This document shows, in pieces, positions 8,397 through 57,734 of a DNA stretch of 64,000 bases. Below the pieces are notes generated by a model. It was not told the DNA's origin. It saw only the letters and a program-made list of their open reading frames with translations, and did not search any database. The translations under genes and the position numbers were made by a program. Every line of letters starts with the position of its first letter. Within the stretch, counting starts at the first letter, position 1. The DNA comes from Gambelia wislizenii (lineage: Eukaryota; Chordata; Lepidosauria; Squamata; Crotaphytidae), in NCBI GenBank assembly GCA_030847615.1, contig JAUMIR010000002.1:193857809-193921808 (forward strand). Reading direction: 5' to 3'.

Positions 8397-8580
8397 AGGA
8401 TTGCCAGAGTGAAAAATGGGGACATCTCCTGTACCTTTAATGGCTGTGTAAAAGATGGAATTTCAGCAGGTGTTACTTGTAACCTGGTTGTGTTACGCCA
8501 GCAACATAAGCTGAAATTCCCTCTTCTACACAGCAATTAAAGGTACAGGAGATGTCTCCAGTTTTCAGTCTGGCAACCCT
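8397..8580. mobile_element. Hairpin MITE, family D, copy 3 (best preserved)
   Basis: The ends AGGATTGCCAGA and TCTGGCAACCCT are inverted repeats, and the whole 184 bp folds back (ggacatctcctgtaccttta against taaaggtacaggagatgtc; tttcagcaggtgttac against the right arm). There is no coding capacity. The transposon superfamily is not assigned. Confidence 0.75.
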
Positions 8581-21767: not shown

Positions 21768-22737
21768 TCATGTCATCCCAAAGGGTAGTCACCAATGGCT
21801 CCTCTTCATCCTGGAGAGAAGTGACCACTGGGGTGCCACAGGGTTCTCTCCTGGGCCCAGGGCTATTCAACATCTTTATCAATGACTTGGATGAGGGAAT
21901 AGAGGGTGTGCTCATCAATTTTGTAGATGACATCAAATTAGGAGGGGTAGCTAATACCCCAGAGGACAGGATCAGAATCCAGGGTGACCTTGACAGATTA
22001 GATAGCTGGGCCAATATTAACAAAATGAATTTCAACAGGCAGAAATGTAGGATACTACACTTGGGAAGTAAAAATGAAATGCACAGATATAGAATGGGTG
22101 ACACATGGCTTGACGGCAGTACATACGAAAAGAATCTAGGAGTCTTAGTGGACCACAAGCTGAACATGAGTCAGCAGTGTGATGCAGCAGCTAAAAAAGC
22201 CAATGCAATTCTAGGCTGCATTAATAGGAGTATAGTGTCTAGATCGAGGGAAGTAACAGTGCCACTGTATTCTGCTTTTGTCAGACCTCACCTGGAATAG
22301 AGTCCAGTTCTGGGCACCATAATTCAGGAAGGATAGTGACAAGCTGGGATGTGTCCAGAGGAGGGCAACCAGGATGGTGGGTGGTCTGGAAGCCATGCCC
22401 TATGAAGAGTGGCTTAGGGAGCTGGACATGTTTAGTCTGGAGAAGAGAAGGTTGAGAGGGCACATGATAGCCATGTTTAAATATTTGAAGGGATGTCATA
22501 CAGAGGATGGGGCAAGCTTGTTTTCTGCTGCTCCAGAGACTAGGACATGGAGCAATGGGTTCAAACTACAGGAAAAGAGAATCCACCTAAACATGAGGAA
22601 GAACATCCTGACAGTAAGAGCTGTTCGGAAGTGGAATACAATGCTCGTAGTGTGGTGGAGTCTCCTTCTTTGGAGGTTTTTAAACAGAGGCTGGATGGCC
22701 ATCTGTTGGGAATGATTTGATTGTGTATTCCACACTT
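21768..22737 (+). mobile_element. CR1 LINE, RT domain to near 3' end
   Basis: The longest CR1 copy here. It opens in the reverse transcriptase at the VPQGSLLGPGLFNIFINDLDEG motif and continues with a changed catalytic box (FVDD instead of FADD) and the connecting domain to ARPHLE-type sequence. A frameshift near 22300 separates this from the C-terminal frame ([25 protein letters not shown]). The last part of the tail is lost, so no octamer repeats remain. Confidence 0.92.
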
Positions 22738-34858: not shown

Positions 34859-35058
34859 AAATAAAACAAAATGCTTTATTTTGGGGGGGCATATATTTAT
34901 CTCAGGTCAATGTAACTGAACTCAACCTAAGTTATCCACAATGCAGGATATTCAGATTATTACTAATAATGTTTTTCCAGGAGGAGGGTTAGTACAGGGC
35001 CCCCACAATGATGGGGGCCCCTGCGGATGCGGAGCCCGCCGGTGCCTTAAACCGGCCC

Positions 35059-35100
35059 TGAATAATAATAAAATTAATAATAATAATAATAATAATAATG
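35059..35100. repeat. (AAT)n microsatellite
   Basis: AAT units interrupted once ('aaaatt'), directly beside the CpG island. A shorter AAT run lies at 34737-34755. Confidence 0.9.
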
Positions 35101-35104
35101 GCAA

Positions 35105-35925
35105 GCCTGGCTGACTTCCAGGGGCTTTCCTCCCAGTCGCCTGGTTGCATAGGCTGCTGCTAGTGCTGGAGTCTCTTAAAAGCCGGCCGGCTGACTGGCT
35201 GGGAGCCGCTCCCGAGGCGTCTTGAGCGCGAGCTAGAAGAGGAAGGCTCTCGGGCTCCCTCGCCCACGGAAGCCGCCGCCGGAGCCTCGCCCCCCTCCCT
35301 CCCTCCCGCGATTGCCCCGCCACCTGCTCGGCCCGGCCCGCCTTTCCCGTCCGCCTCCGGGAGCGACTCTCCGCCCTCGGCCGCCCTGCCCAGGTAGAGC
35401 CAGCCAGCCAGCCAGCCAGCCAGCGAGCGGGGCGGGACCGGGCGCCGGGTTCTCTCCTCCTGGCTCCCTCCGGCGTCGGCGCGCCTTCAAGGCTGCCAGT
35501 CGGGTGGGACCGCGTGGCGCGGTTGCGGGGCTCCCCTCCTTCCCTCTTCCTCCTCCTCTTCCTCGCTCCGTTTCCTCGCCTGACAGTTACTGGCTGCCGG
35601 GTTGGCGGGGTCCGAGCCCTCCTGCTTCGGCGGCTGCTGCTGCTGCTCTGGTTCGGGCTTCCACCCCACCCACGCCCTCCTCCGCATGCTCTTGCCGGCG
35701 GAGTTGTGAGCGGCGGCGGAGGATCGGAAACACACGAGGAGGAGGAGGAGGAGGAGGAGGAGGAGGAGGAGACCCTGCCCGGGGCGAGCAAAGGACGGCC
35801 TGGCCTCGCAACTAACACCCCCCCGCCTTCTCCCTCCTCCACTTCCACCCCCAGACCCCCCCAAGGACCGCCGCGCCCTCCCGGGTAAGTCTTCGGCTGA
35901 GTTCCTGTTTGTGCCACTTTTGCAT
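35105..35925 (+). promoter_or_regulatory. CpG island, probable promoter of a + strand gene
   Basis: About 800 bp with very high G+C and many CpGs, in contrast to AT-rich flanks. There are GC-box-like sequences (ggggcgggac at 35429; other GGCGG motifs), no clear TATA box, and purine/pyrimidine runs: (CCAG)n at 35400-35424 and (GGA)n at 35736-35770. Open frames on both strands are long but of low-complexity composition (Pro/Ser/Arg, Glu or Leu runs) and are a by-product of GC content. The gene is not identifiable from this window. Confidence 0.8.
35600..35884 (+). other. Probable first exon (5' UTR) ending at a splice donor
   Basis: The CpG island ends with CCGG|GTAAGT, a near-consensus 5' splice site with the exon ending at 35884. 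The start is not determinable; I give an arbitrary left boundary inside the island. No ATG-initiated frame with protein-like composition reaches the donor, so I favour a non-coding first exon. No downstream exon of this gene was recognised. Confidence 0.5.
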
Positions 35926-43716: not shown

Positions 43717-45262
43717 TCTCTCTGGCTTTTCTTCGCAAACGAAGATTCAAGAAGGACTCATCCCGCACTTTCTGCAAGCGCGCTGATGACTAAAAAGGCC
43801 AATCCGAGATAGACAAGTCCGGTTGCAGAAAGCACAGCAGAAGGTCTCCTTGGGTGATGTTTTTGGGTTGTGATCCTTTCTGCGTTGTTGTTTCTCTTCA
43901 AGACTAGTTCGGCGTGAGTTCTCAAATAAGGCTGCAGCATTGTGGATAGTGCGTCTCCATGCCTCCCGATGTGAGGCCAGGGCGGACCACTGTTGGTGAT
44001 CAATTTGGCCGAGCCTGGGATGTTGTTTCAGGGAGTCTTTGTATCGCTTTTTTGGAGCGCCCCTCTTACGCTGACCCGTGGCGAGTTCACCGTAGAGTAG
44101 TATTTTTGGGAGGCAATGGTCCCAAACGTGCCCTGCCCAGCGCAGCTGCGTTCTCAATATCATGGCCTCAATGCTGGTGATCCCTGCTTGCTCAAGGACA
44201 GCAACATTTGTCACATAGTCAGTCCAGTGTATATTTAGGATTGTGCGTAGACAGCGCTGATGAAAGCGCTCGAGGAGTCGTAGGTGGTGGCGATAGGTGA
44301 CCCATGTTTCAGATCCATAAAGGAGGATAGACAGTACAATGGCTCTATACACACTGATTTTTGTGCTTTGCCTCAGGTGTTTATTGCTCCAGACTCTTTT
44401 GTGAAGTCTTCCAAATGCACTATATGCCTTTGCTAATCTGTGATCGATCTCTTTGTCAATCTTGGCATCTGAGGAGATGATGCTTCCCAGGTAGGTGAAC
44501 TGCTGAACGGACTTAAGCACAGAGTTGCCGATGGCAGTGTGGGGATGATGGTGTTCGTCCTGTGGTGCAGGCTGGTAAAGAACTTCTGTTTTCTTCAGGT
44601 TGAGTTCCAGCCCAAACAGCTCTGCAGCTGTTGCAAAGTAGGATGTTAGGCGCTGCAGAGCTGCTTCTGTGTGGGCAACAAGGGCAGCATCATCAGCAAA
44701 GAGCAGCTCACGGACTAGATAGTTTAGAGTCTTAGTGTGAGCCCTCAGACTGCTTAAGTTAAACAAGCTACCATCAGTATGGTAACGTATATAGATGCCA
44801 TCGTCTTCTTCAAGCTCTGCCATAGCCCTTTGGAGCATCGTGCTAAAGAAGATTGTAAATAGAGTTGGTGCAAGAACACAACCTTGCTTCACTCAATTAG
44901 CTATTAGAAAGGGCTCTGAAAGAGCATCGCCATATCTGACTTGACCACACTGGCCCTCGTGTAGCAAGATAATCATTTTAAGTAATTTGGGGGGACATCC
45001 TAGTCTTTCCAGGATCTGCCACAGACCTTTTCTACTTACAGTGTCAAAGGCTTTGGTGAGGTCGACAAATGTTACATAGAAACCCTTGTTCTGCTCCCTA
45101 CATTTTTCTTGCAGTTGTCTAAGGGCAAATACCATGTCTGTAGTACTCCTATTGGCTCTGAAGCCACATTGGCTTTCAGGGAGAAGTTCTTCTGCAATAG
45201 CAGGAACTAATCTGTTCAGGAGTATCCTTGCAAGGATTTTTCCAGCAATAGAGAGCAGTGTT
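43717..45262 (-). mobile_element. LINE with (AG)n tail, RT domain to 3' end
   Basis: The longest copy of its family. The minus strand reads from SIAGKILARIL through the RT motifs QCGFRANRSTTDMVFAL, FVDLTKAFDTVS, KQGCVLAPTLF and the catalytic box LLFADDAALVAH, then YLGSIISSDAKIDKEIDHRLAKAYSAFGRLHKRV (split here by motif, not contiguous quotation), YGSETWVT, RTQLRWAGHV and the terminal C-X2-C…H-X4-C finger. The 3' end is the hairpin CTTCG-TTTG-CGAAG (43731-43744). It is 5'-truncated before the N-terminal endonuclease. Confidence 0.9.
43747..45135 (-). pseudogene. LINE ORF2 (reverse transcriptase) with one in-frame stop
   Basis: A single minus-strand frame carries the RT core from 45135 to the native end at 43747, broken only by TGA at 44895-44893, just before the KQGCVLAPT motif. 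It is short by a few residues around 44125 relative to the sister copies (AGHV directly followed by WDH). The catalytic FADD box is intact. It is a partial, non-functional copy lacking the endonuclease, but it decayed much less than the copies at 4204 and 17541. Confidence 0.85.
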
Positions 45263-46775: not shown

Positions 46776-49308
46776 TGTGATAAGTAATTCCAATTTTATT
46801 TTCTTATAGTATGCGCTCTCTCTCTCTTTCTGGTTGTTCGAAATATCATTTTCCCAACAAAAATGTAAAAAGATTAAAAAAAAAAATAACAATTCCTGTA
46901 TTGAGTCCCATAACTACCATCCTGGTAAGTGATAACCTTAGGCCACTTGTTTTGAAAAGTATTAATCTACAGAAGTGATTCTGTGAATGAATTATCTTGG
47001 TTAGTTTTTTTCCAATTAAGTAGCTGACAGATTTTTATGGGCACCTCCCCGAATGTAATCTGTACTGTCAGTGAGTTGCATAATTATGATTATTCTTTGG
47101 TTTAATTGTTTCATTTAAATATCCTAAGAGACCACTTAATTGAAGTATTTCCTAGCATAGCTAATTATATGACCATTGATCTTCAATGCCCTTCTAACAT
47201 TTCTCTATTATTTCAGTACTTATGGGGGATTTGTATTTCAGTGACTTTAAACAGGGAGAAGTCTTCAAAGAGGAATCTGTGAAAGCTCATGCTAAAGTTA
47301 CAGTGCCACAGAACACCATTTCCCTCTTCCCTCACTACTTCTTTACCTTAAATATATGTTTTTAATACTCTGCTGTAATGTCTGACTTGTTAGGTACTGT
47401 ATGTTGTATGGAGATTCTGCAAAGTTCTAACATTCCAATTTTTTAAAAAAAAATTCAGTGAGAGAGCAATATGTTCAAGATTACTAAGTAAGATTTAGTC
47501 TGAGGACTGTCTCTGACATGATGGTTTTCTCATTTTGCAGAGTCTGGAAAATGAACTCATAGCAGAACACTGCTATTGTGGGTTGTGACACAGATGAAAA
47601 CTCCCTTCCTGCCATCTGGCCAGGATATTTGCTTTCGTGTTTAGTTGTTAATTTGCCTCTAGTGTGTATATGTGTGGGGTAGAATCTGGCCTAGGTGAAT
47701 AAGGCTGCATTTACTTGAGAAGTGTGAATTTACAAACCCTTGTTAGAAAGAATACTTAAGAGATTAAGCTGTGAACAGAAGCTACAATAGAAGTTTCTCC
47801 CATTTTGACCACAACAAACAAGGCCCTTTGGTGTGTGCAGTCTTTATCTCATTAATTTTAAAGCCTGTGGATTAAACAAGCTTATCCACAGTTTATATGT
47901 AGGACAAACGGTTTTCATTTGAGTCCATTTCCACTTGAAATAAACTATAATGAACAATTACTCTCTTACCTATGAATGATGCTAGATAAATCATAAGTGT
48001 TTCTGCTTCATAAGCCTCTGACCTACTTATTAGGCTGTCCTCTATTGACTTCTCAGGGTTGTGGTGGAAACTTGTTCTTGGATCTTTTAGGTATCTTATG
48101 CCATTTTCATGAAATCTCATATATTGTGAGGGTTGCATAAAAAAATATTTTAATATTATTGGGGGGGGGAAGGATTAAAAGCCACCAACCTTTTGCTGTG
48201 CTTCTTTGTAATTTGGAAGTTAAGATTTCTTATGGGAAACAGTCCAATAAAACTGCCAACATTTATAAAACAACCTTTAGCAGCATTCTTACATTTGATG
48301 AAGTGAACTCTAGTCCATGGAAGCTAACATAATAATAAATGCATTAGTATTTAATGTGCCACAACACTCTTTCTTTTTGATTCCTCAGAATGTTCTCTTT
48401 GCCTATAGCCTCTGAATTATTGGAGGTTTAGTAAACTTTTCCTGTTGCATAGCATTCACTAGGGAGAGCAATCTGTAACCCCTGTTCTCTATATAAAATT
48501 CAACTTCCCACTTTTTAGTAAAAGCAAATGAGCATGCTTGACTAGTTTTCCATCCGGTTTTATGACAGCTACAAGCGGCATTCAGAAAGAAGCCATCTGC
48601 TTAAGTACATATATTCAAAATAAGTAGAACAACAGTTAATTGATGGGTTATCTTAATCTTTTTTTAAAAAAAACATGATTGATTAAAATGCGTTAAATTT
48701 AAATGCCTGCAATTTAATTAGGCAGCAGATATTCCAATTAAAAATTATACAGTACTTATAAAAATTGCTGAGAGCAAACACCATCTTAAAATGTGCATCC
48801 CCCTTACAAAGATTACAGCATGTTCTGGATGGGGCTTCTTACAAAACCTGTACACGTCCTTGAAAAATAAAGGAGAAACCCTCCTTGCTTCAAGAAAAAA
48901 GATCTTACCGGTACCTATTTGCACATTTAATTGATGAAAACTCATATGGCTGGTTGGTTTTGCAATGTCTTTAATCAGGTTGTAGCCCTTCTAATTTACG
49001 TAACTGATAATAGTTTATAAGTGTGATTGTGTTCCTGTCTTTAAACACACTGGGAGGTAATAGATTCTTACTATTTTGATTGTTCCATGTGAGGGACTGT
49101 AGGGAAAAATTAACACTTTAAGAGTCATGAATGGAGTCTGTTAGTACATTGAATACAACAGTTTATTTAAATACTCCACCAAGAGGAGAGCCTGGATGTT
49201 CAGAGTCTACTGCCTACCTGACACTTAAACCAAGCTTGTATCAAATTCTTATGAAGCCATGTGGTGGCTGCATTTGAGCAACAATCACTAACCCTTTCCT
49301 CTTCCATG
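46776..49308. other. AT-rich DNA, no feature recognised
   Basis: Long AT-rich, repeat-poor stretch with no convincing frames. It may hold conserved non-coding sequence, but that cannot be judged from one genome. Confidence 0.35.
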
Positions 49309-49385
49309 TTGTTGTTGAATGCCTTCAAGTCATTTCTGACTTACGACGACCCTATCACAGGGTTTTCTTGGCAAGATTTGCTATA
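49309..49385 (-). mobile_element. CORE/MIR-type SINE tail
   Basis: 'gttgttgttgaatgccttcaagtcatttctgacttacgacgaccctatcacagggttttcttggcaagatttgct': the tail and end of the body, reversed. Confidence 0.75.
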
Positions 49386-49741
49386 ACACCAGGTTTTCTG
49401 GGTTCAGTTGAAAACTGAGAAGCAAAGGTTTAAGTCTTCCCCCTTTCATGGGCCAAAGGAAGTGGAAAAGATAAAGCACAACTCCACAGTGCTTGTGGCA
49501 GCAAATCGTGTGTTGAAATGAATGCTTGGAACACAGCTGGTTAGATGTCAGGTCTCTTCCTGCCTATGGTGCCTGTTCATAGCAGTCCCAGGCATGTCTG
49601 TACTTGCCCACTGGGGATGGCTTGAAGGTCAGGGAGTCCATGGTAAAGACTGGGCTTGTACCCTGGTACCTCAGATCAAAGCTCAGTTTTTAAATCTACT
49701 CACTTGCCTATAGGTAGTGTGTGTGGGGGGGGGGTTGTTTG

Positions 49742-50070
49742 TGTCAGGCTCATCCCTGAATTCTGGGCATTGGAGTGGAATTCATGGAGGCCCTGACATG
49801 TAGCTAGTATTTTCTCAGGATTTTGGAATGCCTGAGAAGTGAGCCAGGCCTCCTGGTTGGCATGGTAACGCAAGTCCTACCGGGAACTCAAGGCCACGCT
49901 CCCCAGCTACTTTTACTCCCCCGTGTCTGTTCTCACGCTTGATGCCTTATTATCTCTGGATAGTTTACATTTACTTCAGTAGCAGCTTTGCAATGGTTCC
50001 TTACACAAGCTACTCTTCCAATAAAGAGTTTTATTGAAGAACCCTGAGTTTGTGTTCTGAGTACATCACA
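49742..50070 (+). repeat. 5' LTR (U3-R-U5)
   Basis: 329 bp, TG…CA. The inferred transcript start is 49978, where the 12-mer complementary to the primer site begins; a TATA-like TTATTAT lies about 25-30 bp upstream (49947-49953). The polyadenylation signal AATAAA is at 50020-50025, followed by a GT-rich stretch at 50049-50058. Hence U3 is about 49742-49977, R about 49978-50045 and U5 the rest. The first 57 bp contain an interrupted inverted repeat (TGTCAGG with CCTGACA; TGAATTC with GAATTCA). Confidence 0.95.
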
Positions 50071-50071
50071 G

Positions 50072-50083
50072 AAAGCTGCTACT
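50072..50083 (+). other. Primer binding site, self-priming type
   Basis: AAAGCTGCTACT, one base after the LTR, is the exact reverse complement of AGTAGCAGCTTT at 49978-49989 in the LTR. In Tf1/sushi elements the 5' end of the transcript folds back on this site and primes minus-strand synthesis in place of a tRNA. The 12-bp complement is seen directly; the mechanism is inferred from the family. Confidence 0.85.
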
Positions 50084-50138
50084 CCTTACTTTTATTTTTT
50101 TTTTCCTCTGTCCTGAAACTGTGGAGCCTTTGCCTGCA

Positions 50139-51671
50139 ATGTCTGACGACGCAGAGACTGGCACACAGACGGACCAAGATCTGATTGCAGCCAGCGCCAG
50201 AGAAGCCGAGGCCTCGAAGCAGGAGGCCGGGGCAGAGGGGGGTGCTGTAGCTGCCGCAGCTGAAGGCACCAGCCGGGACCGAGACCGCCGGAGGGCTGCA
50301 GTATTTCGACCCTCCACTGAGCCCTGGGAGCTGGGGATGGAGCTGGCTCCAGGGAGGGGCAGCCTGCCAAGCTTCGGCACTCCAGTGCGAGAGGTTTTAG
50401 GCCCTGCCTGGCCATGGGCAGGGGCCGGACGCCGAGAAGACCGCCGGTCCCGGTGGGACAGACCCCAGGGTGAGGGGCCTAGAGAGCCAGAAGCGAAGTT
50501 TTCCTTGGCAGAAGTTGGAACCGAGGTTCTTCAACTGAAACAGCAAATGGGTGAGATACGGGAGGTGCTCCTAGAACTCCTGCACAGAACCCCTCCAGCT
50601 CCACCAGCACCCGGAGGGGCCCAGCCTCCCCCAGCGCCACCTGCGGCTGCCCAGGCGCCCGGGGATGGAGTCCCCGCTCAGCCCCCAGCTGTACCTGGCC
50701 TGCCGGCTCCTGGACCGGCTCCCCCGGTGGGGGCTGGCCCGGTTGAGCCGCAGGAGCGACCCCGGGGCTGGAAACACCGGCACCTGAAGGCGAAGTTCGA
50801 TGGGGATCCAGCAAAACTACCCTACTTCATGACTCAAGTGGTGAGTTACATGACCCAGTGGGAAGGGGAGTTCCAGTCTGAGGCTGAGAAAGTGCAGTAT
50901 GTGTCCAACCAACTGGAGGGAGAGGCGGCTCAGTGGTTGGTGGGTCTGTATGATATGGGAGCCCCTGAACTGGGTAATTACCAAGAGTTCCTGATGGCTC
51001 TCAGGGCCCAGTTTGACGATCCCTTAAGAGGGAAGCGGGCTCGAAGCAAGCTTAGGAGCCTGAAGCAAGGCACGATGCCCGTGGCCGAGTACGCAGCTGA
51101 GTTCCGCCGCCTAGCCAGCCAAGTACCGGAGTGGCCAGAGGAGGTCAAGGTGCAGTTTTTCCAGGAGGGCCTGAACCCTGACATTCTAGAGTGGGCCAAG
51201 TTCCAGGGAGACCCCGAAACCCTCATGGGGTGGATACGGCTGGCTGGGGAAGTGGAGTCGGTGAAGGCCAGCATTAAGATGTTGCGCCGCCAGGCTGGGA
51301 CGGAGGGGAAATCCGCTGGGGCCCCCGGGAAGAAGACCAAGACGGCACGCTCGGGGGGAGGCACCACCGGAGAGACCGAACGTGAGCGAAGGATGAGAAA
51401 GGGTCTGTGCCTGCATTGTGGGAGGAGCGGACACCGCATAGCGGAGTGCCCAGAGAGGAGCCCACGGGAGCAACCCGCCGCCGCCAAGCCAGCGCGGAGC
51501 GAGGGGAGATCCGGGTCCTCCAAGACGCCCTCCAAACCCAAGACCAGGGCGACGGCCAGGGCCCTGGCAGCGGGCCAGGCGGCAGGGGAGTCCTCAGATG
51601 ATCCCGAGGATAGTGGGTCCTACTCCTCCGACGCTGAGCCGGCGGGAAACGGGCCCAGCCCGCCCTACTGA
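50139..51671 (+). CDS. gag: Gag polyprotein (capsid and CCHC nucleocapsid)
   Basis: 510 residues from the first ATG of the frame (MSDDAETG); six further in-frame codons upstream lack an ATG. Residues 119-148 form a probable coiled coil (VLQLKQQMGEIREVLLELL), 150-205 are Pro/Ala-rich, about 217-385 match the Ty3-type capsid (FDGDP…WLVGLYD…YQEFLMALRAQFDD…EYAAEFRRLA), and 424-437 are a CX2CX4HX4C zinc knuckle (CLHCGRSGHRIAEC). The basic segment after it and an acidic Ser/Asp C-terminus (SSDDPEDSGSYSSDAEP) follow. Gag would assemble the cytoplasmic particle and bind the RNA. The layout resembles the Gag-like part of mammalian PEG10 and RTL genes, which derive from this group. No frame break is present. 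Confidence 0.95.
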   Translation: MSDDAETGTQTDQDLIAASAREAEASKQEAGAEGGAVAAAAEGTSRDRDRRRAAVFRPSTEPWELGMELAPGRGSLPSFGTPVREVLGPAWPWAGAGRREDRRSRWDRPQGEGPREPEAKFSLAEVGTEVLQLKQQMGEIREVLLELLHRTPPAPPAPGGAQPPPAPPAAAQAPGDGVPAQPPAVPGLPAPGPAPPVGAGPVEPQERPRGWKHRHLKAKFDGDPAKLPYFMTQVVSYMTQWEGEFQSEAEKVQYVSNQLEGEAAQWLVGLYDMGAPELGNYQEFLMALRAQFDDPLRGKRARSKLRSLKQGTMPVAEYAAEFRRLASQVPEWPEEVKVQFFQEGLNPDILEWAKFQGDPETLMGWIRLAGEVESVKASIKMLRRQAGTEGKSAGAPGKKTKTARSGGGTTGETERERRMRKGLCLHCGRSGHRIAECPERSPREQPAAAKPARSEGRSGSSKTPSKPKTRATARALAAGQAAGESSDDPEDSGSYSSDAEPAGNGPSPPY

Positions 51672-51703
51672 GCGCCCGAGGGCGGGCTAATCCGGAAGGG
51701 CGC
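51644..51703 (+). promoter_or_regulatory. -1 ribosomal frameshift signal (slippery site and pseudoknot)
   Basis: G GGA AAC at 51644-51650 is in phase with gag (GGA and AAC are gag codons). After a 6-nt spacer, AGCCCGCCC (51657-51665) pairs perfectly with GGGCGGGCT (51680-51688). The loop hexamer GCGCCC (51672-51677) pairs with GGGCGC (51698-51703). This is an H-type pseudoknot with loops of 6, 2 and 9 nt. The gag stop (51669-51671) sits in loop 1. The pol frame has a stop at 51635-51637, so it can only be entered between there and the gag stop, exactly where the heptamer lies. Confidence 0.92.
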
Positions 51704-54700
51704 CCGGATGCCGTGGTGAGTGGAGTGAAGGGCCCGTTCTTTATCAAAGCTCGAGTGGGGGTTGGAGGGGAGGGCCCCACCCGCAAAGTTATGTTAATGA
51801 TTGACTCTGGTTGTACCCAAGTACTTATTCATCCCTCCTTAGTCAGTGAACTAAACGTTGATACTGTTAAGCTGGACAAGCCCGTGTGGCTGTCTCAGAT
51901 GGATGGGGGGATGATGAAGGGGGGCCCCGCCCGGCGCATAACTGGTCCCATGCACATGAGGATGGGCAACCACCAGGAGGAACTGCAGTTTGTGATTGCT
52001 CCAGGATTAGTCCCTGCGGCAGTTGTGGGTCTGAACTGGCTAAAGTACCACAACCCCTCCATAGACTGGATAAAAGAAACACTGACTTTTGCAGACCCGT
52101 TGTGTATCAAGGAGCACGGGGCGGGGGGAGGATCCCCAGGGGACGGGGGCCCCCTGGTGGATAAGCCGCAGAATTACACAACTGCCTTAGTAAAAGGGGA
52201 GCTGAAAGGGTTGCCAGTGGAGTACAAGGCGTGGCAATATGTGTTTGAGGAGAAGGAATGTGACATTTTGCCACCCCACCGGCCTTTTGACTGTGCCATT
52301 GAGATACTCTCGGAGTCCAGCCTGCCCAAACCTCGCATTTATTCTATGACACCAGCTGAAATGGAGGCGCTCCGAGAGTTCATAGATAAGAACTTAGCCC
52401 GAGGGTTCATTAGGCCCTCAACCTCGCCTGTGGGGGCCCCGGTGATGTTTAGGCGCAAGGCTGATGGCGGGCTTCGTTTGATTCAGGATTACAGAGGGCT
52501 AAACGCTATTAGTGTCTCCAACCAGTACCCCCTGCCCTTGATGAAGGACATATTAGCCCATCTCTCCAAAGGGAAGATTTTCACGAAGCTGGATCTACGA
52601 GAGGCCTACTACAGAGTACGGATTCGGGAGGGGGACGAGTGGAAGACTGCATTTAATTGCCCCCTAGGGGCTTTTGAGTTCCTCGTCATGCCTTTCGGCC
52701 TCAAAGGGGCCCCTGGCATCTTTCAGAACTTGATTAATGATGTGTTACGTGAATTTTTGTACAAAGGGGTGTTGGTGTACCTTGATGATGTGTTGATTTA
52801 TTCGGAGGACTACACGTCCCATGTGAAACTGGTGAAAAAGGTGCTTACCAGGTTGGGGGAAAATCATCTGTATGCGAAAATGTCCAAGTGTGAGTTCCAC
52901 CAAAGCCGTCTAGATTATCTAGGGTACCGCATCTCAAACAAAGGGATTGAAATGGACCCAGAAAAGGTTAAGGGGGTCTTGGCATGGGAAGCCCCTAGAA
53001 CCAGGAAACAGTTGCAGAGCTTCCTGGGGTTTGCTAATTTTTATCGGTCCTTCATCCCTGACTTTGCGTCGGTAGCCCTCCCCCTGACAGATTTGTTAAA
53101 AACCAAAGAAGGGAAAACCAAAGATTCCAAGCACGGTAAAGGGAACAAACCTCCCCAAAAAATTGTGTGGTCACCACAGTGCCAACAAGCATTTGACAAA
53201 TTGAAATCCCTTTTCACTTCTGAACCTATTCTCAAACACCCCGACCCCTCCCAACCTTTCGTGGTCCAAGTGGACGCATCTGATGTGGCTATGGGTGGGG
53301 TGTTGTTGCAAAAGGGGGAGGACGGGGATTTGAGGCCATGTGCCTATTTATCCAGAAAGTTCAATGACACGGAACGAAATTGGCCAGTGTGGGAGAAAGA
53401 GGCAGGTGCTATCAAGTTGGCACTAGAGACATGGCGCCACCTACTGGAGGGCTCACCCAAACCGTTTGAAGTTTGGACTGATCATAAAAATTTGGAAGTA
53501 TTGGCTACCCCTAGGCGTTTGAGCCCCAAGCAGGTCAGGTGGGCCAGTTTCTTTTACCGATTTAATTTCACCTTGAAATTTATCCCGGGGAAAAGGAATT
53601 TTCTGGCTGACGCTTTGTCCAGGCTACCACAGCATGAGAGTAAGCGCAAGGAGGTCGTTGATACCGTTTTTTCTCCTTCCCACTTGGGACTAGCCGTCCT
53701 CACTCGGAGCAAAGCCAAAGAACAGAAATCCACTGATAGCCCTGCTCAGGTGCCGGGTCCTACTGAAAGTGGCGGTGATTCACCCTTGGCGCAGGGACCG
53801 GTGCCACAGCCCTTGAACCCCGACCCGCCTTCCCCCGATCCGGGGACCCAGGGGGTGACCCCTACGGCAGATGGCTCTGCCACGCCCACTGTTTCTCAAG
53901 GGGAGGAAGGAGGGTGGCATGCTCAATTGGCCTCGGAACTGCCCCGGGACCAGTGGTTCCTGGCTCACCCCAATGAGGTAACTGTGAAGGAGGGGGTGGC
54001 CTGGAAAGGGGATCGCCTGTATGTTCCTGAGGTCTTGAGAGCGAGTATTCTCAAACAGTGCCATGATGTCAAGAGTGTGGGACATTTTGGGTATCTCAAA
54101 ACTTTACATTTGGCCCGCAGACAATTTTGGTGGCCCCGCATGAGGAAGGAGGTGGAGGATTATGTAAAGGGGTGTACCACTTGTGCAGTGTCAAAAGGGG
54201 GGTCAGGGAAGCCCAAGGGTTTGCTCCACCCTCTACCTACCCCAAACAAGCCCTGGGAGGTCATTAGCATGGATTTTATTGTGGATTTGCCAGAGAGTAG
54301 GAAAAAGACGGTTATTTGGGTTGTGACTGATTTGTTTTCCAAGCAAGCGCATTTTGTGGCCTGTAAGAAGCTCCCCACAGCCTCCCAACTAGCCAAATTG
54401 TTCATTCAGCATATTTATCGGATTCATGGCATTCCGGCCAAGATTGTGTCGGATCGGGGGGCACAATTTACTTCGCAGTTTTGGAAGGCTTTCACAAACC
54501 TTCTAGGGGTGGAGCTTGGTCTCAGCAGCTCCCATCATCCCCAATCGGATGGACAATCGGAACGAACGAACCAGACTCTGGAACAATACCTAAGGTGCTA
54601 TGTGAATTTCCAACAATCTGATTGGGTTGATCTTCTACCTTTTGCTGAAGTGGCCTACAATAATGCCACTCACCAGAGCACTGGGCTCTCGCCGTTCAAG

Positions 54701-55324
54701 GTTGTGTCTGGGCATGATTTCGGTCCCCTCCCCTTGTTGGAGGGGTCTCCCAACTCTGACCCCGTTTCGGTCTCCCAGTGGAGTCAAAAGGTCAGGGATG
54801 CGTGGCCTCATGTAATCTCGGCCTTGGACTTTGCCAAAGCACGCTACAAACATTATGCTGATCAGAAACGGGACCCTTCCCCCAGATATGCAGTGGGAGA
54901 TATGGTTTATTTGTCCACCAAATTCCTTAAGTGTCCCCAACCCTCAAAAAAGTTGGGAGCCAAATACATCGGACCTTTTCGTGTTGTTAGGATGATAAAT
55001 CCTGTGGCTTTTGAACTGTCTTTGCCTAAGTTGTACCGTCATGTACATCCTGTGTTTCATTCCAGCCTGCTCAAGCCCGTGAGCCCTCCGGACAAACACC
55101 ACCCGGCTCCAGAACCTGCTCCTCAGCCGATCCTGGTGGATCAAGACCAACATTTTGAAATTTCTGAGATTCTGGACTCTAGACTTCACCGGGGAGGGTT
55201 ACAGTATTTGGTAAAGTGGAAACACCTGCCTTTGGGCCATGCAGAGTGGGTTGCTTCTGAGCATGTCAATGCCAAACGCTTATTGCGAAAGTTTCATGCC
55301 CGCTTTCCCGATAAGCCGGGCTGA
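51650..55324 (+). CDS. pol: Pol: protease, RT, RNase H, integrase, chromodomain
   Basis: Expressed by -1 shift; I number from the first codon after the slip (51650), 1,224 residues. Protease: D52-S-G in LMIDSGCTQ. RT about 207-450: LDLREAYY, MPFGLKGAPG, catalytic YLDD 377-380. RNase H: D542 (VDASD) to D654 (LADALSRL). A Pro/Ser-rich linker at about 680-750 precedes integrase: zinc ligands H805, H812, C842, C845; catalytic D875, D935, E971 (DD35E); GPF motif at 1108. Chromodomain about 1168-1220 (HFEISEILDSR, YLVKWKHLP, EWVASEHV) with the aromatic/tryptophan positions present, likely steering integration to marked histones. The frame is intact with all catalytic residues. No ATG is needed, and the first plausible in-frame codons are not ATG, which agrees with frameshift expression. 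Confidence 0.95.
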   Translation, partial: RAQPALLSARGRANPEGRPDAVVSGVKGPFFIKARVGVGGEGPTRKVMLMIDSGCTQVLIHPSLVSELNVDTVKLDKPVWLSQMDGGMMKGGPARRITGPMHMRMGNHQEELQFVIAPGLVPAAVVGLNWLKYHNPSIDWIKETLTFADPLCIKEHGAGGGSPGDGGPLVDKPQNYTTALVKGELKGLPVEYKAWQYVFEEKECDILPPHRPFDCAIEILSESSLPKPRIYSMTPAEMEALREFIDKNLARGFIRPSTSPVGAPVMFRRKADGGLRLIQDYRGLNAISVSNQYPLPLMKDILAHLSKGKIFTKLDLREAYYRVRIREGDEWKTAFNCPLGAFEFLVMPFGLKGAPGIFQNLINDVLREFLYKGVLVYLDDVLIYSEDYTSHVKLVKKVLTRLGENHLYAKMSKCEFHQSRLDYLGYRISNKGIEMDPEKVKGVLAWEAPRTRKQLQSFLGFANFYRSFIPDFASVALPLTDLLKTKEGKTKDSKHGKGNKPPQKIVWSPQCQQAFDKLKSLFTSEPILKHPDPSQPFVVQVDASDVAMGGVLLQKGEDGDLRPCAYLSRKFNDTERNWPVWEKEAGAIKLALETWRHLLEGSPKPFEVWTDHKNLEVLATPRRLSPKQVRWASFFYRFNFTLKFIPGKRNFLADALSRLPQHESKRKEVVDTVFSPSHLGLAVLTRSKAKEQKSTDSPAQVPGPTESGGDSPLAQGPVPQPLNPDPPSPDPGTQGVTPTADGSATPTVSQGEEGGWHAQLASELPRDQWFLAHPNEVTVKEGVAWKGDRLYVPEVLRASILKQCHDVKSVGHFGYLKTLHLARRQFWWPRMRKEVEDYVKGCTTCAVSKGGSGKPKGLLHPLPTPNKPWEVISMDFIVDLPESRKKTVIWVVTDLFSKQAHFVACKKLPTASQLAKLFIQHIYRIHGIPAKIVSDRGAQFTSQFWKAFTNLLGVELGLSSSHHPQSDGQSERTNQTLEQYLRCYVNFQQSDWVDLLPFAEVAYNNATHQSTGLSPFKVVSGHDFGPLPLLEGSPNSDPVSVSQWSQKVRDAWPHVISALDFAKARYKHYADQKRDPSPRYAVGDMVYLSTKFLKCPQPSKKLGAKYIGPFRVVRMINPVAFELSLPKLYRHVHPVFHSSLLKPVSPPDKHHPAPEPAPQPILVDQDQHFEISEILDSRLHRGGLQYLVKWKHLPLGHAEWVASEHVNAKRLLRKFHARFPDKPG

Positions 55325-55358
55325 GAAAGGGGGAGGGTTGGTCTTCAGGGGGGCAGTA
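55324..55358 (+). other. Polypurine tract region
   Basis: Two purine runs separate pol from the 3' LTR: agaaagggggaggg (from 55324) and aggggggcagta directly against the LTR (55347-55358). The second is the likely plus-strand primer because it abuts the LTR. Confidence 0.75.
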
Positions 55359-55687
55359 TGTCAGGCTCATCCCTGAATTCTGGGCATTGGAGTGGAATTC
55401 ATGGAGGCCCTGACATGTAGCTAGTATTTTCTCAGGATTTTGGAATGCCTGAGAAGTGAGCCAGGCCTCCTGGTTGGCATGGTAACGCAAGTCCTACCGG
55501 GAACTCAAGGCCACGCTCCCCAGCTACTTTTACTCCCCCGTGTCTGTTCTCACGCTTGATGCCTTATTATCTCTGGATAGTTTACATTTACTTCAGTAGC
55601 AGCTTTGCAATGGTTCCTTACACAAGCTACTCTTCCAATAAAGAGTTTTATTGAAGAACCCTGAGTTTGTGTTCTGAGTACATCACA
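55359..55687 (+). repeat. 3' LTR
   Basis: 329 bp with no difference from the 5' LTR in a direct line-by-line reading. The polyadenylation signal is at 55637-55642. Confidence 0.95.
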
Positions 55688-55692
55688 GTTTG

Positions 55693-56269
55693 TTTTTTAA
55701 ATCAAATTTATTGATTTTCCACTGAAGCTCAGTACTAAAACAAAAATTAGCCTGAAACAAATATCATACGTGCATTTGAAACTGACCAGAATGCTATGCT
55801 ATTTGTAGCTGCTGTGGTATTCTGAGTCACTATAAAAGTTGAAAAGTTCCTAGATGAACAGTTCCCATGTAAAAATTAGCACACAGTGTACACAAGGGTA
55901 GCTTTTTTTTCAAGGACTGTAGTCCCCTTGGGGTTAATCGGTCTGGAGTGCTGTGACCCCAGTGGGAAAACCCATCCCTTTTGGGGGGGGTTTCCCCCTG
56001 CTACTAACTTCTCTCACTGTTTCTGCCACTCTTTTTTCTTCCCTCCTTGCCCAGGAGGCTACTGGAGAATGGCTCAGCGGCCAGTGTTCTGCTTTTGGGG
56101 TCCTCTAAGGGCCACATTGACTGTCAAAAAAATTGTCCAGAATGTTTTTAAAATGTTAAACCTGTGCAGTGGGACTCTGCAGTTGATTTTAAGGATGACT
56201 TGAACTGGAGGCTTTCAGGGAGACAAGTCACACATTTTGAGGGGGTGTATGGAGCTAAGAAAAGGCTGC
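55693..56269. other. No feature recognised
   Basis: Unassigned. Continues the T-rich DNA into which the retrotransposon inserted. Confidence 0.3.
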
Positions 56270-56560
56270 CAGTTCATTTCTGGGCACAATTCAGAGTGCT
56301 GGTTTTGACCTATAAAGCCCTATGTGGCCTGGGTCCAGGTTATTTGAAGGACCATGTCTCCCCTTATGAGCCCATTAGAGCTCTTAGATCATCTGGGGAG
56401 GCCCTTCTCTCTGTCCCACCACCTTCTCAGGCTCATTTGGTGAGAGGGCCTTCTCGGTGGCTGCTCCCAGATTTTGGGACACCCTCCCCAAAGAGGCCAG
56501 CATAGCCCCATCTTTGATCTCCTTTGATGTTAGCCACTTTGAGTGGGATAGAAATGAATA
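56270..56560 (+). mobile_element. L2-type LINE C-terminus and 3' end
   Basis: Encodes VLVLTYKALCGLGPGYLKDH and SPYEPIRALRSSGEALLSV. The frame shifts after 'ctcggtggctgc'. It ends 'ctttgatgttagccactttgagtgggatagaaatgaataat', followed by a (TGG)n tract at 56563-56585. Confidence 0.85.
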
Positions 56561-56585
56561 ATAATGGTGGTGGTGGTGGTGGTGA

Positions 56586-57734
56586 TGGCCTGTGGGGTGT
56601 GTGTGGTGAGCTTGAGGTGATAAGAACAGCCTTGGGTTACTGCATGTGGCCCCAGGTCTACACTTTATCTACCTGTGCTTGAGCAAGAGGTATGAATGAT
56701 GATGGTTTGCACAGGGCCGTGTGAAATTAGCTGAAGAGCCATGTGCTTCCTGAGGACTGCAGGTTGCCCTCCAACCCACACATGTGTTTGGTCTGAATAT
56801 GTCTGTGCATTATGTGTGCCTGCCTCCTGGAGGTTGGATGCAAATTCCATGTAGTTTCCATCTAATGCAGCATGCTGCTTCTTGCAGGAAATAACAAAGA
56901 GTTGTGCATCTAAAACCATCCAAAAAGTAGAGCCTGCTTTTTGCAGCTGTCTAAGAAATAGTCCAAGTTCTCTGAAACTGGAACCATCTCCTAGCCTGCT
57001 GCCTGAAGGGCAACTCCTTGGAAAATTTGATAAAATGAACTTGTTAATACGCTGATGTCTTTTGCACGCAAGGAGGGAGGTGGTTGCGATGATGTGTGTA
57101 CTTATGTGTGTTTGGAAAATCATTTTCCAGGGATCCAATGGAACATGAGTTTGAAGGAAATGCTGTTGCTGTGAAGCTCTTGGGCTATGCTTGCCAGACA
57201 CCTTTTTGGTTTGAAAGGATTCTTTTCATCAGTTGGGCACTGTGTACAAGACTCTCTTTGCTATGTGTAAGAGCTGGTAATCTTATGTGGTGGGGAAAGA
57301 ACAACATGGCAAGAAAAGATTAAAAGAGCGGAATGGCTCTCACTTCCTGCCCCCTGTAATGTTGGTCCTTTCATGACATTTTAATGAGATGCCAGCCTGT
57401 TGCTTCTAGCTTCAGCTTGTATGGAAGTAAGTGATGCCTTATTGTAGAGCAAGGGTGGGGAAACTGTAGCCTGCAGTCCTCAGCCCCCTCCCATGTTTTT
57501 TAAAAAATGGGGGGTTTTTTGCCAGAAGATCTCAAAACTATTGTCAAATGTGTTAGTTTTGCCCCAACAGTACCTATATCCTCACCTACCCACCCTGATG
57601 CATCAAAAACCACCCAAAAACAAAACCAGAAAGTTAAGTCACTTCCACTCATATCAGATATGCCAGTATGGCCCTGGTGGGGGGCTTGGGGGTGGAAAAT
57701 GTCCCCCACACTCTCCAGTGTTGCCCATCCCTAG
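56586..57734. other. No gene recognised
   Basis: A hAT-like left end ('agcaagggtggggaaactgtagcctgcagtcc') is at about 57446-57480. Open frames on both strands have no recognisable motifs. Confidence 0.3.

What the first reader, a model, noticed from the sequence alone, without database searches (positions are those of the whole stretch)
51644..51703. Textbook -1 frameshift pseudoknot at the gag/pol junction, same heptamer as PEG10
G GGA AAC in gag phase, 6-nt spacer, 9-bp perfect stem 1, 6-bp perfect stem 2, loops 6/2/9 nt, with a pol-frame stop 6 nt upstream of the heptamer and the gag stop inside loop 1. The mammalian sushi-derived gene PEG10 is established to use GGGAAAC plus a pseudoknot. 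The signal here is what a living relative of that ancestor would have.
Basis: partly seen in the sequence, partly recalled or inferred. Interest (0 to 1): 0.8.

Follow-up and report, generated by a model that had tools for sequence, protein, structure and literature searches.

The report
Retrotransposon gag/pol frameshift pseudoknot
A young lizard- or snake-like retrotransposon carries a well-formed RNA signal that should make ribosomes slip back one base to produce its enzymes, and fungal-like relatives carry a signal of the same layout, so the layout looks old and not specific to the mammalian gene PEG10.

Summary
Of 801 slippery heptamers in the window only this one is followed by such a pseudoknot. 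It sits in a complete, young Tf1/sushi-type chromovirus, 49742-55687, whose RT groups with Gekko and Pantherophis.

New evidence: in 8 of 19 fungal-like relatives from bacterial records the -1 site ends exactly 18 nt before the gag stop, as here; 7 of those 8 have stem 1 in the same columns. With the window, 7 of 11 pairs change on both sides; without it, 3. A model trained without the window ranks this site first in 64 kb, weakly (E 0.22; missed with default filters).

The PEG10 link holds only at group level: the heptamer is not diagnostic, and PEG10's capsid domain matches fungal-like capsids (37-41 bits) better than this one (19-21). Frameshifting was not measured; host copies could not be searched.

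The parts
49742..50070 (+). 5' LTR, 329 bp, TGTCAGG...CACA; identical to the 3' LTR
   Evidence: 300-nt repeat core, 100%; 329 bp identical
49737..49741 (+). target-site duplication GTTTG, left copy
50072..50083 (+). primer-binding site AAAGCTGCTACT, complementary over 12 nt to the element's own LTR at 49978-49989: Tf1-type self-priming (inferred)
50139..51671 (+). gag ORF from the first in-frame ATG, 510 aa; capsid (Retrotrans_gag, Ty3_capsid, DUF4939) and one CCHC knuckle
51635..51637 (+). last pol-frame stop (TGA) upstream of the shift site
51644..51650 (+). slippery heptamer G_GGA_AAC
51651..51656 (+). 6-nt spacer GGGCCC
51657..51666 (+). stem 1, 5' arm (10 bp)
51667..51671 (+). loop 1, holding the gag stop TGA 51669-51671
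51672..51677 (+). stem 2, 5' arm GCGCCC
51679..51688 (+). stem 1, 3' arm
51689..51697 (+). loop 3 (9 nt), whose 51690-51695 can instead pair with 51704-51709
51698..51703 (+). stem 2, 3' arm GGGCGC
51690..51709 (+). alternative 6-bp hairpin (AUCCGG/CCGGAU) whose 8-nt loop holds the stem-2 3' arm; probably mutually exclusive with stem 2 (steric inference)
51644..55324 (+). pol frame (-1 relative to gag), no internal stop: protease with DSG, RT, RNase H, integrase H2C2 and core, Tf2-1-like SH3, chromodomain
   Evidence: the integrase core match (rve, 18.9 bits) is under Pfam's cut-off, as the piece searched cuts through it
55359..55687 (+). 3' LTR
55688..55692 (+). target-site duplication GTTTG, right copy

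Best explanation
This is a programmed -1 ribosomal frameshift signal of a recently inserted, apparently intact Tf1/sushi-type chromovirus, probably in a squamate genome. Ribosomes translating gag reach G GGA AAC, are slowed by the downstream H-type pseudoknot, and a fraction re-pair one base back on GGG AAA and continue into pol to make Gag-Pol; the rest stop at the UGA in loop 1 and make Gag. The layout (shift site 18 nt before the gag stop, 6-nt spacer, 10-11 bp stem 1, stop codon in loop 1 directly before the stem-2 5' arm) is shared with fungal-like Tf1/sushi relatives and may be an old trait of this lineage. Shown: sequence, frames, pairing potential, element integrity, comparative pairing. 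Inferred: that the pseudoknot forms, that ribosomes shift, the rate, the host, and common descent of the layout. The confidence given is for the frameshift signal, not for common descent.
For: Frames, stops and both stems. 1 of 801 heptamers in the window is followed by such a pseudoknot; shuffles reach it in 0-5 of 20,000. Element complete with identical LTRs, TSD and the expected domains. 8 of 19 relatives have GGGAAAC (L001, L005, L018) or GGAAAAC (L002, L003, L004, L006, L009) ending exactly 18 nt before the gag-frame stop, as here. Stem 1 on six aligned sequences (window plus L002, L004, L006, L009, L018): 59 of 66 cells paired, 7 of 11 pairs changed on both sides; 0 of 500 shuffles reach these or the covariation score, 4 of 500 reach the number of pair types; sliding the partner drops pairing to 17-38%. 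Pseudoknot energy at the 6-nt spacer against 400 shuffles each: window 0, L004 0, L009 0, L006 1, L001 4 as good. Stem 2: Fisher p 0.0014 over 7 loci without the window. A model trained on 5 relatives ranks 51639-51688 first in 64 kb on both strands, exact register, filters off.
Against: No translation data. The blind model hit is weak (E 0.22 over 64 kb; 0.021 over the element) and is missed with default filters. In one search L018 is matched or beaten by 36 of 400 shuffles and L002 forms no qualifying structure at exactly 6 nt (400 of 400). Relatives without the window give only 3 of 11 two-sided pairs (36 of 500 shuffles as many; pair types 415 of 500; covariation score 0 of 500). I cut the aligned pieces to one length from the shift site, and shared ancestry inflates such shuffles. 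Stem 2 is weak in L004 (p 0.28), L018 (0.12), L003 (0.11), L009 (0.093) and absent in L005 (0.64). 11 of 19 loci do not show the 18-nt layout. One of six nested folds from 51657 loses stem 1.
Confidence: 0.9

Rival explanations
1. The layout was reached independently in the squamate-type and fungal-like elements: any -1 site needs a short spacer and a stem, and gag tends to end soon after it.
For: Spacing limits are general to -1 sites (recalled). The fungal-like model scores the window only 11.0 bits. Other relatives differ: L010 GGGAAAA 15 nt and L011 CCCAAAA 9 nt before the stop. No junction of an element between the two in the RT tree could be examined.
Against: Spacer, stem-1 columns, distance to the stop and the stop-then-stem-2 order all agree at once; the site ranks first in 64 kb in exact register, and pairing matters, since within the element the sequence-only model puts it third with 3.1 bits.
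Confidence: 0.4
2. The active stimulator is not the H-type pseudoknot alone: stem 2 and the 51690-51709 hairpin exclude each other, so the RNA switches between a pseudoknot and two hairpins, setting the shift rate.
For: The 6-bp hairpin closes exactly around the stem-2 3' arm; 58 of 20,000 shuffles conditional on S1 and S2 have as much. S1 plus that hairpin is -29.7 kcal/mol and its pairs have probabilities of 0.92-1.0 in the nested ensemble of 51657-51712.
Against: Found after looking, so the count is not a fair test. The hairpin is not in the best nested fold for 3' ends 51720, 51745 and 51800 (at 51760 the free fold loses stem 1 too). The relatives were not tested for a like hairpin. Exclusivity rests on a steric argument (a 1-nt linker cannot span three stacked stems), not a computation.
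Confidence: 0.2
3. Pol is expressed another way (splicing or re-initiation) and the heptamer plus stems are incidental to a GC-rich stretch.
For: 76% GC; a competing nested fold exists; an in-frame ATG lies at 51791, four codons before the protease DSG (read); no translation evidence.
Against: Chance controls and two-sided changes when the window is set beside relatives; no in-frame ATG among the pol-frame codons printed for 51638-51759.
Confidence: 0.05

Closest known systems
PEG10 (mammalian domesticated sushi-type gene) frameshift signal
   Same: G_GGA_AAC plus a downstream pseudoknot at a gag/protease junction, -1 direction (PMC4598141, PMC2800197, passages)
   Different: PEG10: 5-nt spacer, 61-nt overlap, pseudoknot placed just before the gag stop (PMC2800197, PMC12772957, passages). 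Here: 6-nt spacer, 34-nt overlap, stop inside loop 1. Capsid similarity weak. PEG10's pseudoknot sequence could not be compared: two primary papers asked for are not held.
Tf1/sushi-group chromoviruses (fungal Tf1/Tf2, vertebrate sushi-ichi; group names and traits recalled)
   Same: Domain order, Tf2-1-like SH3, chromodomain, self-priming site, RT similarity
   Different: RT about 50% identical to fish and 53-55% to frog relatives; the nearest named ones are squamate, 68-73%
Gypsy-15_Ano (Anolis by its name), the PEG10-clade proxy of PMC11011659
   Same: Metavirus compared with the PEG10 clade
   Different: Stated there to lack a frameshift (passage seen); this element has one.
SRV-1 and other pseudoknot-dependent -1 sites of retroviruses
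   Same: GGGAAAC heptamer in SRV-1 (PMC7297798, passages), downstream pseudoknot
   Different: Different element family; the stop-in-loop-1 layout was not compared with SRV-1

Membership tests
-1 programmed frameshift signal (heptamer plus pseudoknot) | X_XXY_YYZ in the phase of the upstream ORF | tested here: met
-1 programmed frameshift signal (heptamer plus pseudoknot) | possible stimulatory structure at short spacing, beyond chance | tested here: met
-1 programmed frameshift signal (heptamer plus pseudoknot) | pairing conserved by compensatory change in relatives | tested here: met
   with the window; weaker without it; only distant relatives were available
-1 programmed frameshift signal (heptamer plus pseudoknot) | measured frameshift product | not testable with these tools
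   needs a reporter or ribosome profiling
Tf1/sushi chromovirus | gag CA/CCHC, PR, RT, RNase H, IN, chromodomain between LTRs | tested here: met
   integrase core match under Pfam's cut-off because the piece cuts it
Tf1/sushi chromovirus | self-primed reverse transcription (PBS complementary to own LTR) | tested here: met
   12-nt complement; its use as primer is inferred
Tf1/sushi chromovirus | RT phylogeny with vertebrate sushi-type elements | tested here: inconclusive
   firm (100/100) clade of 5 rows with Gekko and Pantherophis; its place beside frog and fish rows is open (94/95) and no row named sushi-ichi was included
closest living kin of the PEG10 ancestor | capsid closer to PEG10 than that of other sushi-group elements | tested here: not met
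   versus 58, 59, 88, 89; only the PEG10 capsid domain of 7lga was available
closest living kin of the PEG10 ancestor | pseudoknot homologous to PEG10's | not tested
   PEG10 RNA sequence not available

The most novel reading that the evidence does not exclude
The junction layout (shift site exactly 18 nt before the gag stop, stem 1 at 6 nt, stop codon in loop 1 abutting stem 2) is one RNA element inherited by Tf1/sushi chromoviruses of fungi and vertebrates, and PEG10's frameshift signal is a domesticated descendant of it.
Probability: 0.35. Interest if true: 0.65.

Novelty: new member of a known kind. Interest (0 to 1): 0.42.

Why it matters
PMC11011659 (passage) says PEG10's metaviral ancestor almost certainly had a frameshift while the proxy chosen there lacks one. 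An intact, young reptile-type element that has one is a possible experimental stand-in at group level, and the shared layout in fungal-like relatives makes the age of the signal testable by ordinary sequence comparison.

Tried and rejected
Other copies in the host: the genome search 'own' was sent 19 times and never answered. blastn of six pieces of the element found no other copy in the window. Viral contigs gave no relative with four RT queries and no match to a 21-mer of the junction. Rfam gave nothing above a gathering score in 49000-57000. Gag searches in the protein database gave 1 hit (only the 7988 candidates sharing most words were scored) and 3 hits, none named PEG10. I first read 51690-51709 as a kissing hairpin; dropped because the 1-nt linker to stem 1 seems too short for all three stems to coexist. 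I wondered whether the MAG loci come from fish; for L001-L009 the six best of 123 fetched proteins are unnamed JGI/ENA proteins and, for each of the nine, the fungus Absidia (60-68%), and no fish, so I call them fungal-like; their host is not established. Literature listings (0 papers; 13: 30 of 33 shown; 14: 23; 46: 15 of 18; 57: 3; 86: 15 of 404) showed no title on this layout in sushi-group elements; that is a limited look, and most subscription papers are not held. One search (sample accession) gave 0 papers.

Full report
What was claimed and what is there. Read by script, its parts are present: G GGA AAC in gag phase, pol-frame stop 6 nt upstream, gag TGA at 51669-51671, 6-nt spacer, stem 1 of 10 pairs (one more than stated), stem 2 of 6 pairs. 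The loops are then 5/1/9 nt.

Chance. Of 801 slippery heptamers on both strands of the 64-kb window, one is followed at 4-10 nt by S1>=9 and S2>=6 perfect pairs: this one. Three nulls of the downstream stretch give 0, 5 and 0 of 20,000. The stretch is GC-rich (76%), so composition is a real concern; stem 2 alone reaches only p = 0.029.

The element. 49742-55687 is a complete LTR retrotransposon: 329-bp LTRs with no difference, GTTTG on both sides, a 12-nt primer site complementary to its own LTR, gag with capsid and CCHC, and pol with protease, RT, RNase H, integrase, Tf2-1-like SH3 and chromodomain (the integrase core is under Pfam's cut-off because the searched piece cuts it). Zero differences in 329 bp suggest a recent insertion. 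Among the 120 best RT hits listed of 7017 and their alignment, Gekko japonicus is 73%, Pantherophis guttatus 68%, an unnamed protein (P0003) 68% and three frogs 53-55% identical. A tree of 30 RT rows puts the window with Gekko, Pantherophis and two unnamed rows (5 rows, 100/100) on a long stem. The host is inferred, not known.

Relatives with a junction. The scan of genome contigs with an RT alignment returned 19 loci in records titled as bacteria. Against the 123 proteins fetched, the six best matches of each of L001-L009 are unnamed JGI/ENA proteins and the fungus Absidia, no fish, so I take them for fungal-like contaminants. In 8 of 19 the -1 site ends exactly 18 nt before the gag-frame stop, as in the window: GGGAAAC in L001, L005, L018; GGAAAAC in L002, L003, L004, L006, L009. 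In L005 the gag phase has a stop at about 1034, some 280 nt upstream of the site, and L003 begins at the site. L008 has a stop directly after a CGGAAAC; L010 and L011 have other sites at 15 and 9 nt; L007 and L019 show overlapping -1 frames without a canonical heptamer; L012-L017 showed no such junction.

Stem 1. I cut five of these and the window to 50 nt around the shift site; MAFFT aligned them without gaps, in the register it had given longer pieces (there it set L001 apart). On columns 19-29/40-50, 59 of 66 cells pair and 7 of 11 pairs change on both sides; 0 of 500 shuffles reach either or the covariation score, 4 of 500 the number of pair types; sliding the partner by 1-3 columns drops pairing to 17-38%. 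Without the window and with L005 added, 60 of 66 cells pair but only 3 pairs change on both sides (36 of 500 shuffles as many; covariation score 0 of 500). L001 has a 7-bp stem at the same 6-nt spacer but its 3' arm lies further out. A covariance model trained on the five relatives without the window also found L003 and L005 (E 1e-14, 1e-11) and, weakly, L001 (0.067) and L008 (0.5). In the window it missed the site with default filters; with filters off the site is the best of 64 kb on both strands, in exact register, E 0.22, and 0.021 over the element alone. The sequence-only version gives 3.1 bits, third in the element, and nothing in 64 kb with default filters. E-values from such models are rough by the tool's own statement.

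Stem 2. The stretch after the stop pairs downstream in most of these relatives, in part with matching changes (L002 AGGAACC/GGTTCCT, L006 GTAGGAGC/GCTCCTAC, L018 AGAGCT/AGCTCT; L001 GGAGUC/GACUCC). Combined shuffle p is 0.0014 for 7 loci (L002-L006, L009, L018; L001 and L008 not included) and 0.00037 with the window; single values run from 0.0055 to 0.64. In one search the joint S1+S2 score at 6 nt is matched by 0, 4, 36, 400, 0, 1 and 0 of 400 shuffles for window, L001, L018, L002, L004, L006 and L009.

Mechanism. The anatomy is that of P- and A-site slippage from GGA AAC to GGG AAA with a pseudoknot stimulus. Frameshifted ribosomes make Gag-Pol, the rest end at UGA in loop 1. This follows from established knowledge of -1 sites; it was not measured. 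A second fold exists: 51690-51695 with 51704-51709, a hairpin whose loop holds the stem-2 3' arm (58 of 20,000 conditional shuffles). It is not in the best nested fold for several 3' ends. I judge it exclusive with stem 2, from geometry only.

PEG10. [quoted passage not shown] PMC11011659 (passages) holds that PEG10's ancestor had a frameshift but that its proxy, Gypsy-15_Ano, has none. The heptamer is shared more widely (SRV-1, PMC7297798, passages; PMC5009743, passages, lists it among the most shift-prone with mammalian ribosomes). Against the solved PEG10 capsid domain 7lga, this gag scores 18.8 and 21.0 bits, a carp element 24.1, and three fungal-like elements 39.1, 37.4 and 40.7. The window element is thus not the nearest kin of PEG10 among those tested; one short domain is a thin basis for that.

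Verdict. A real and well-formed frameshift signal in a young intact element: a new member of a known kind. The part worth following is the shared layout across fungal-like and squamate-type elements. Common descent is plausible, not shown; junctions from fish, frog and other squamate elements would bear on it and were out of reach here, and the host genome search did not complete.

Noticed in passing
L001-L019 (records titled as bacteria): Cyanobacterial, proteobacterial and other species-representative genome records hold Ty3/gypsy chromovirus fragments that look eukaryotic, nine of the 19 in one Trichormus bin: probable contamination.
   Followed up: partly
L006, L009, L018 gag ORFs: Three fungal-like gag proteins match the human PEG10 capsid domain (7lga) at E 1e-8 to 1e-9, better than a carp or the squamate-type element does.
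   Followed up: partly
window 43747-44892 (-) and 21770-22300 (+): Two reverse-transcriptase ORF fragments (Pfam RVT_1), perhaps non-LTR elements; type not tested.
   Followed up: no
window 8440-8536 (-): ARAGORN calls a 97-nt tRNA-Ser (GCT) gene; gene or tRNA-derived repeat not decided.
   Followed up: no
window 34952-35917 (-): 321-aa ORF with no Pfam match at E 0.01.
   Followed up: no
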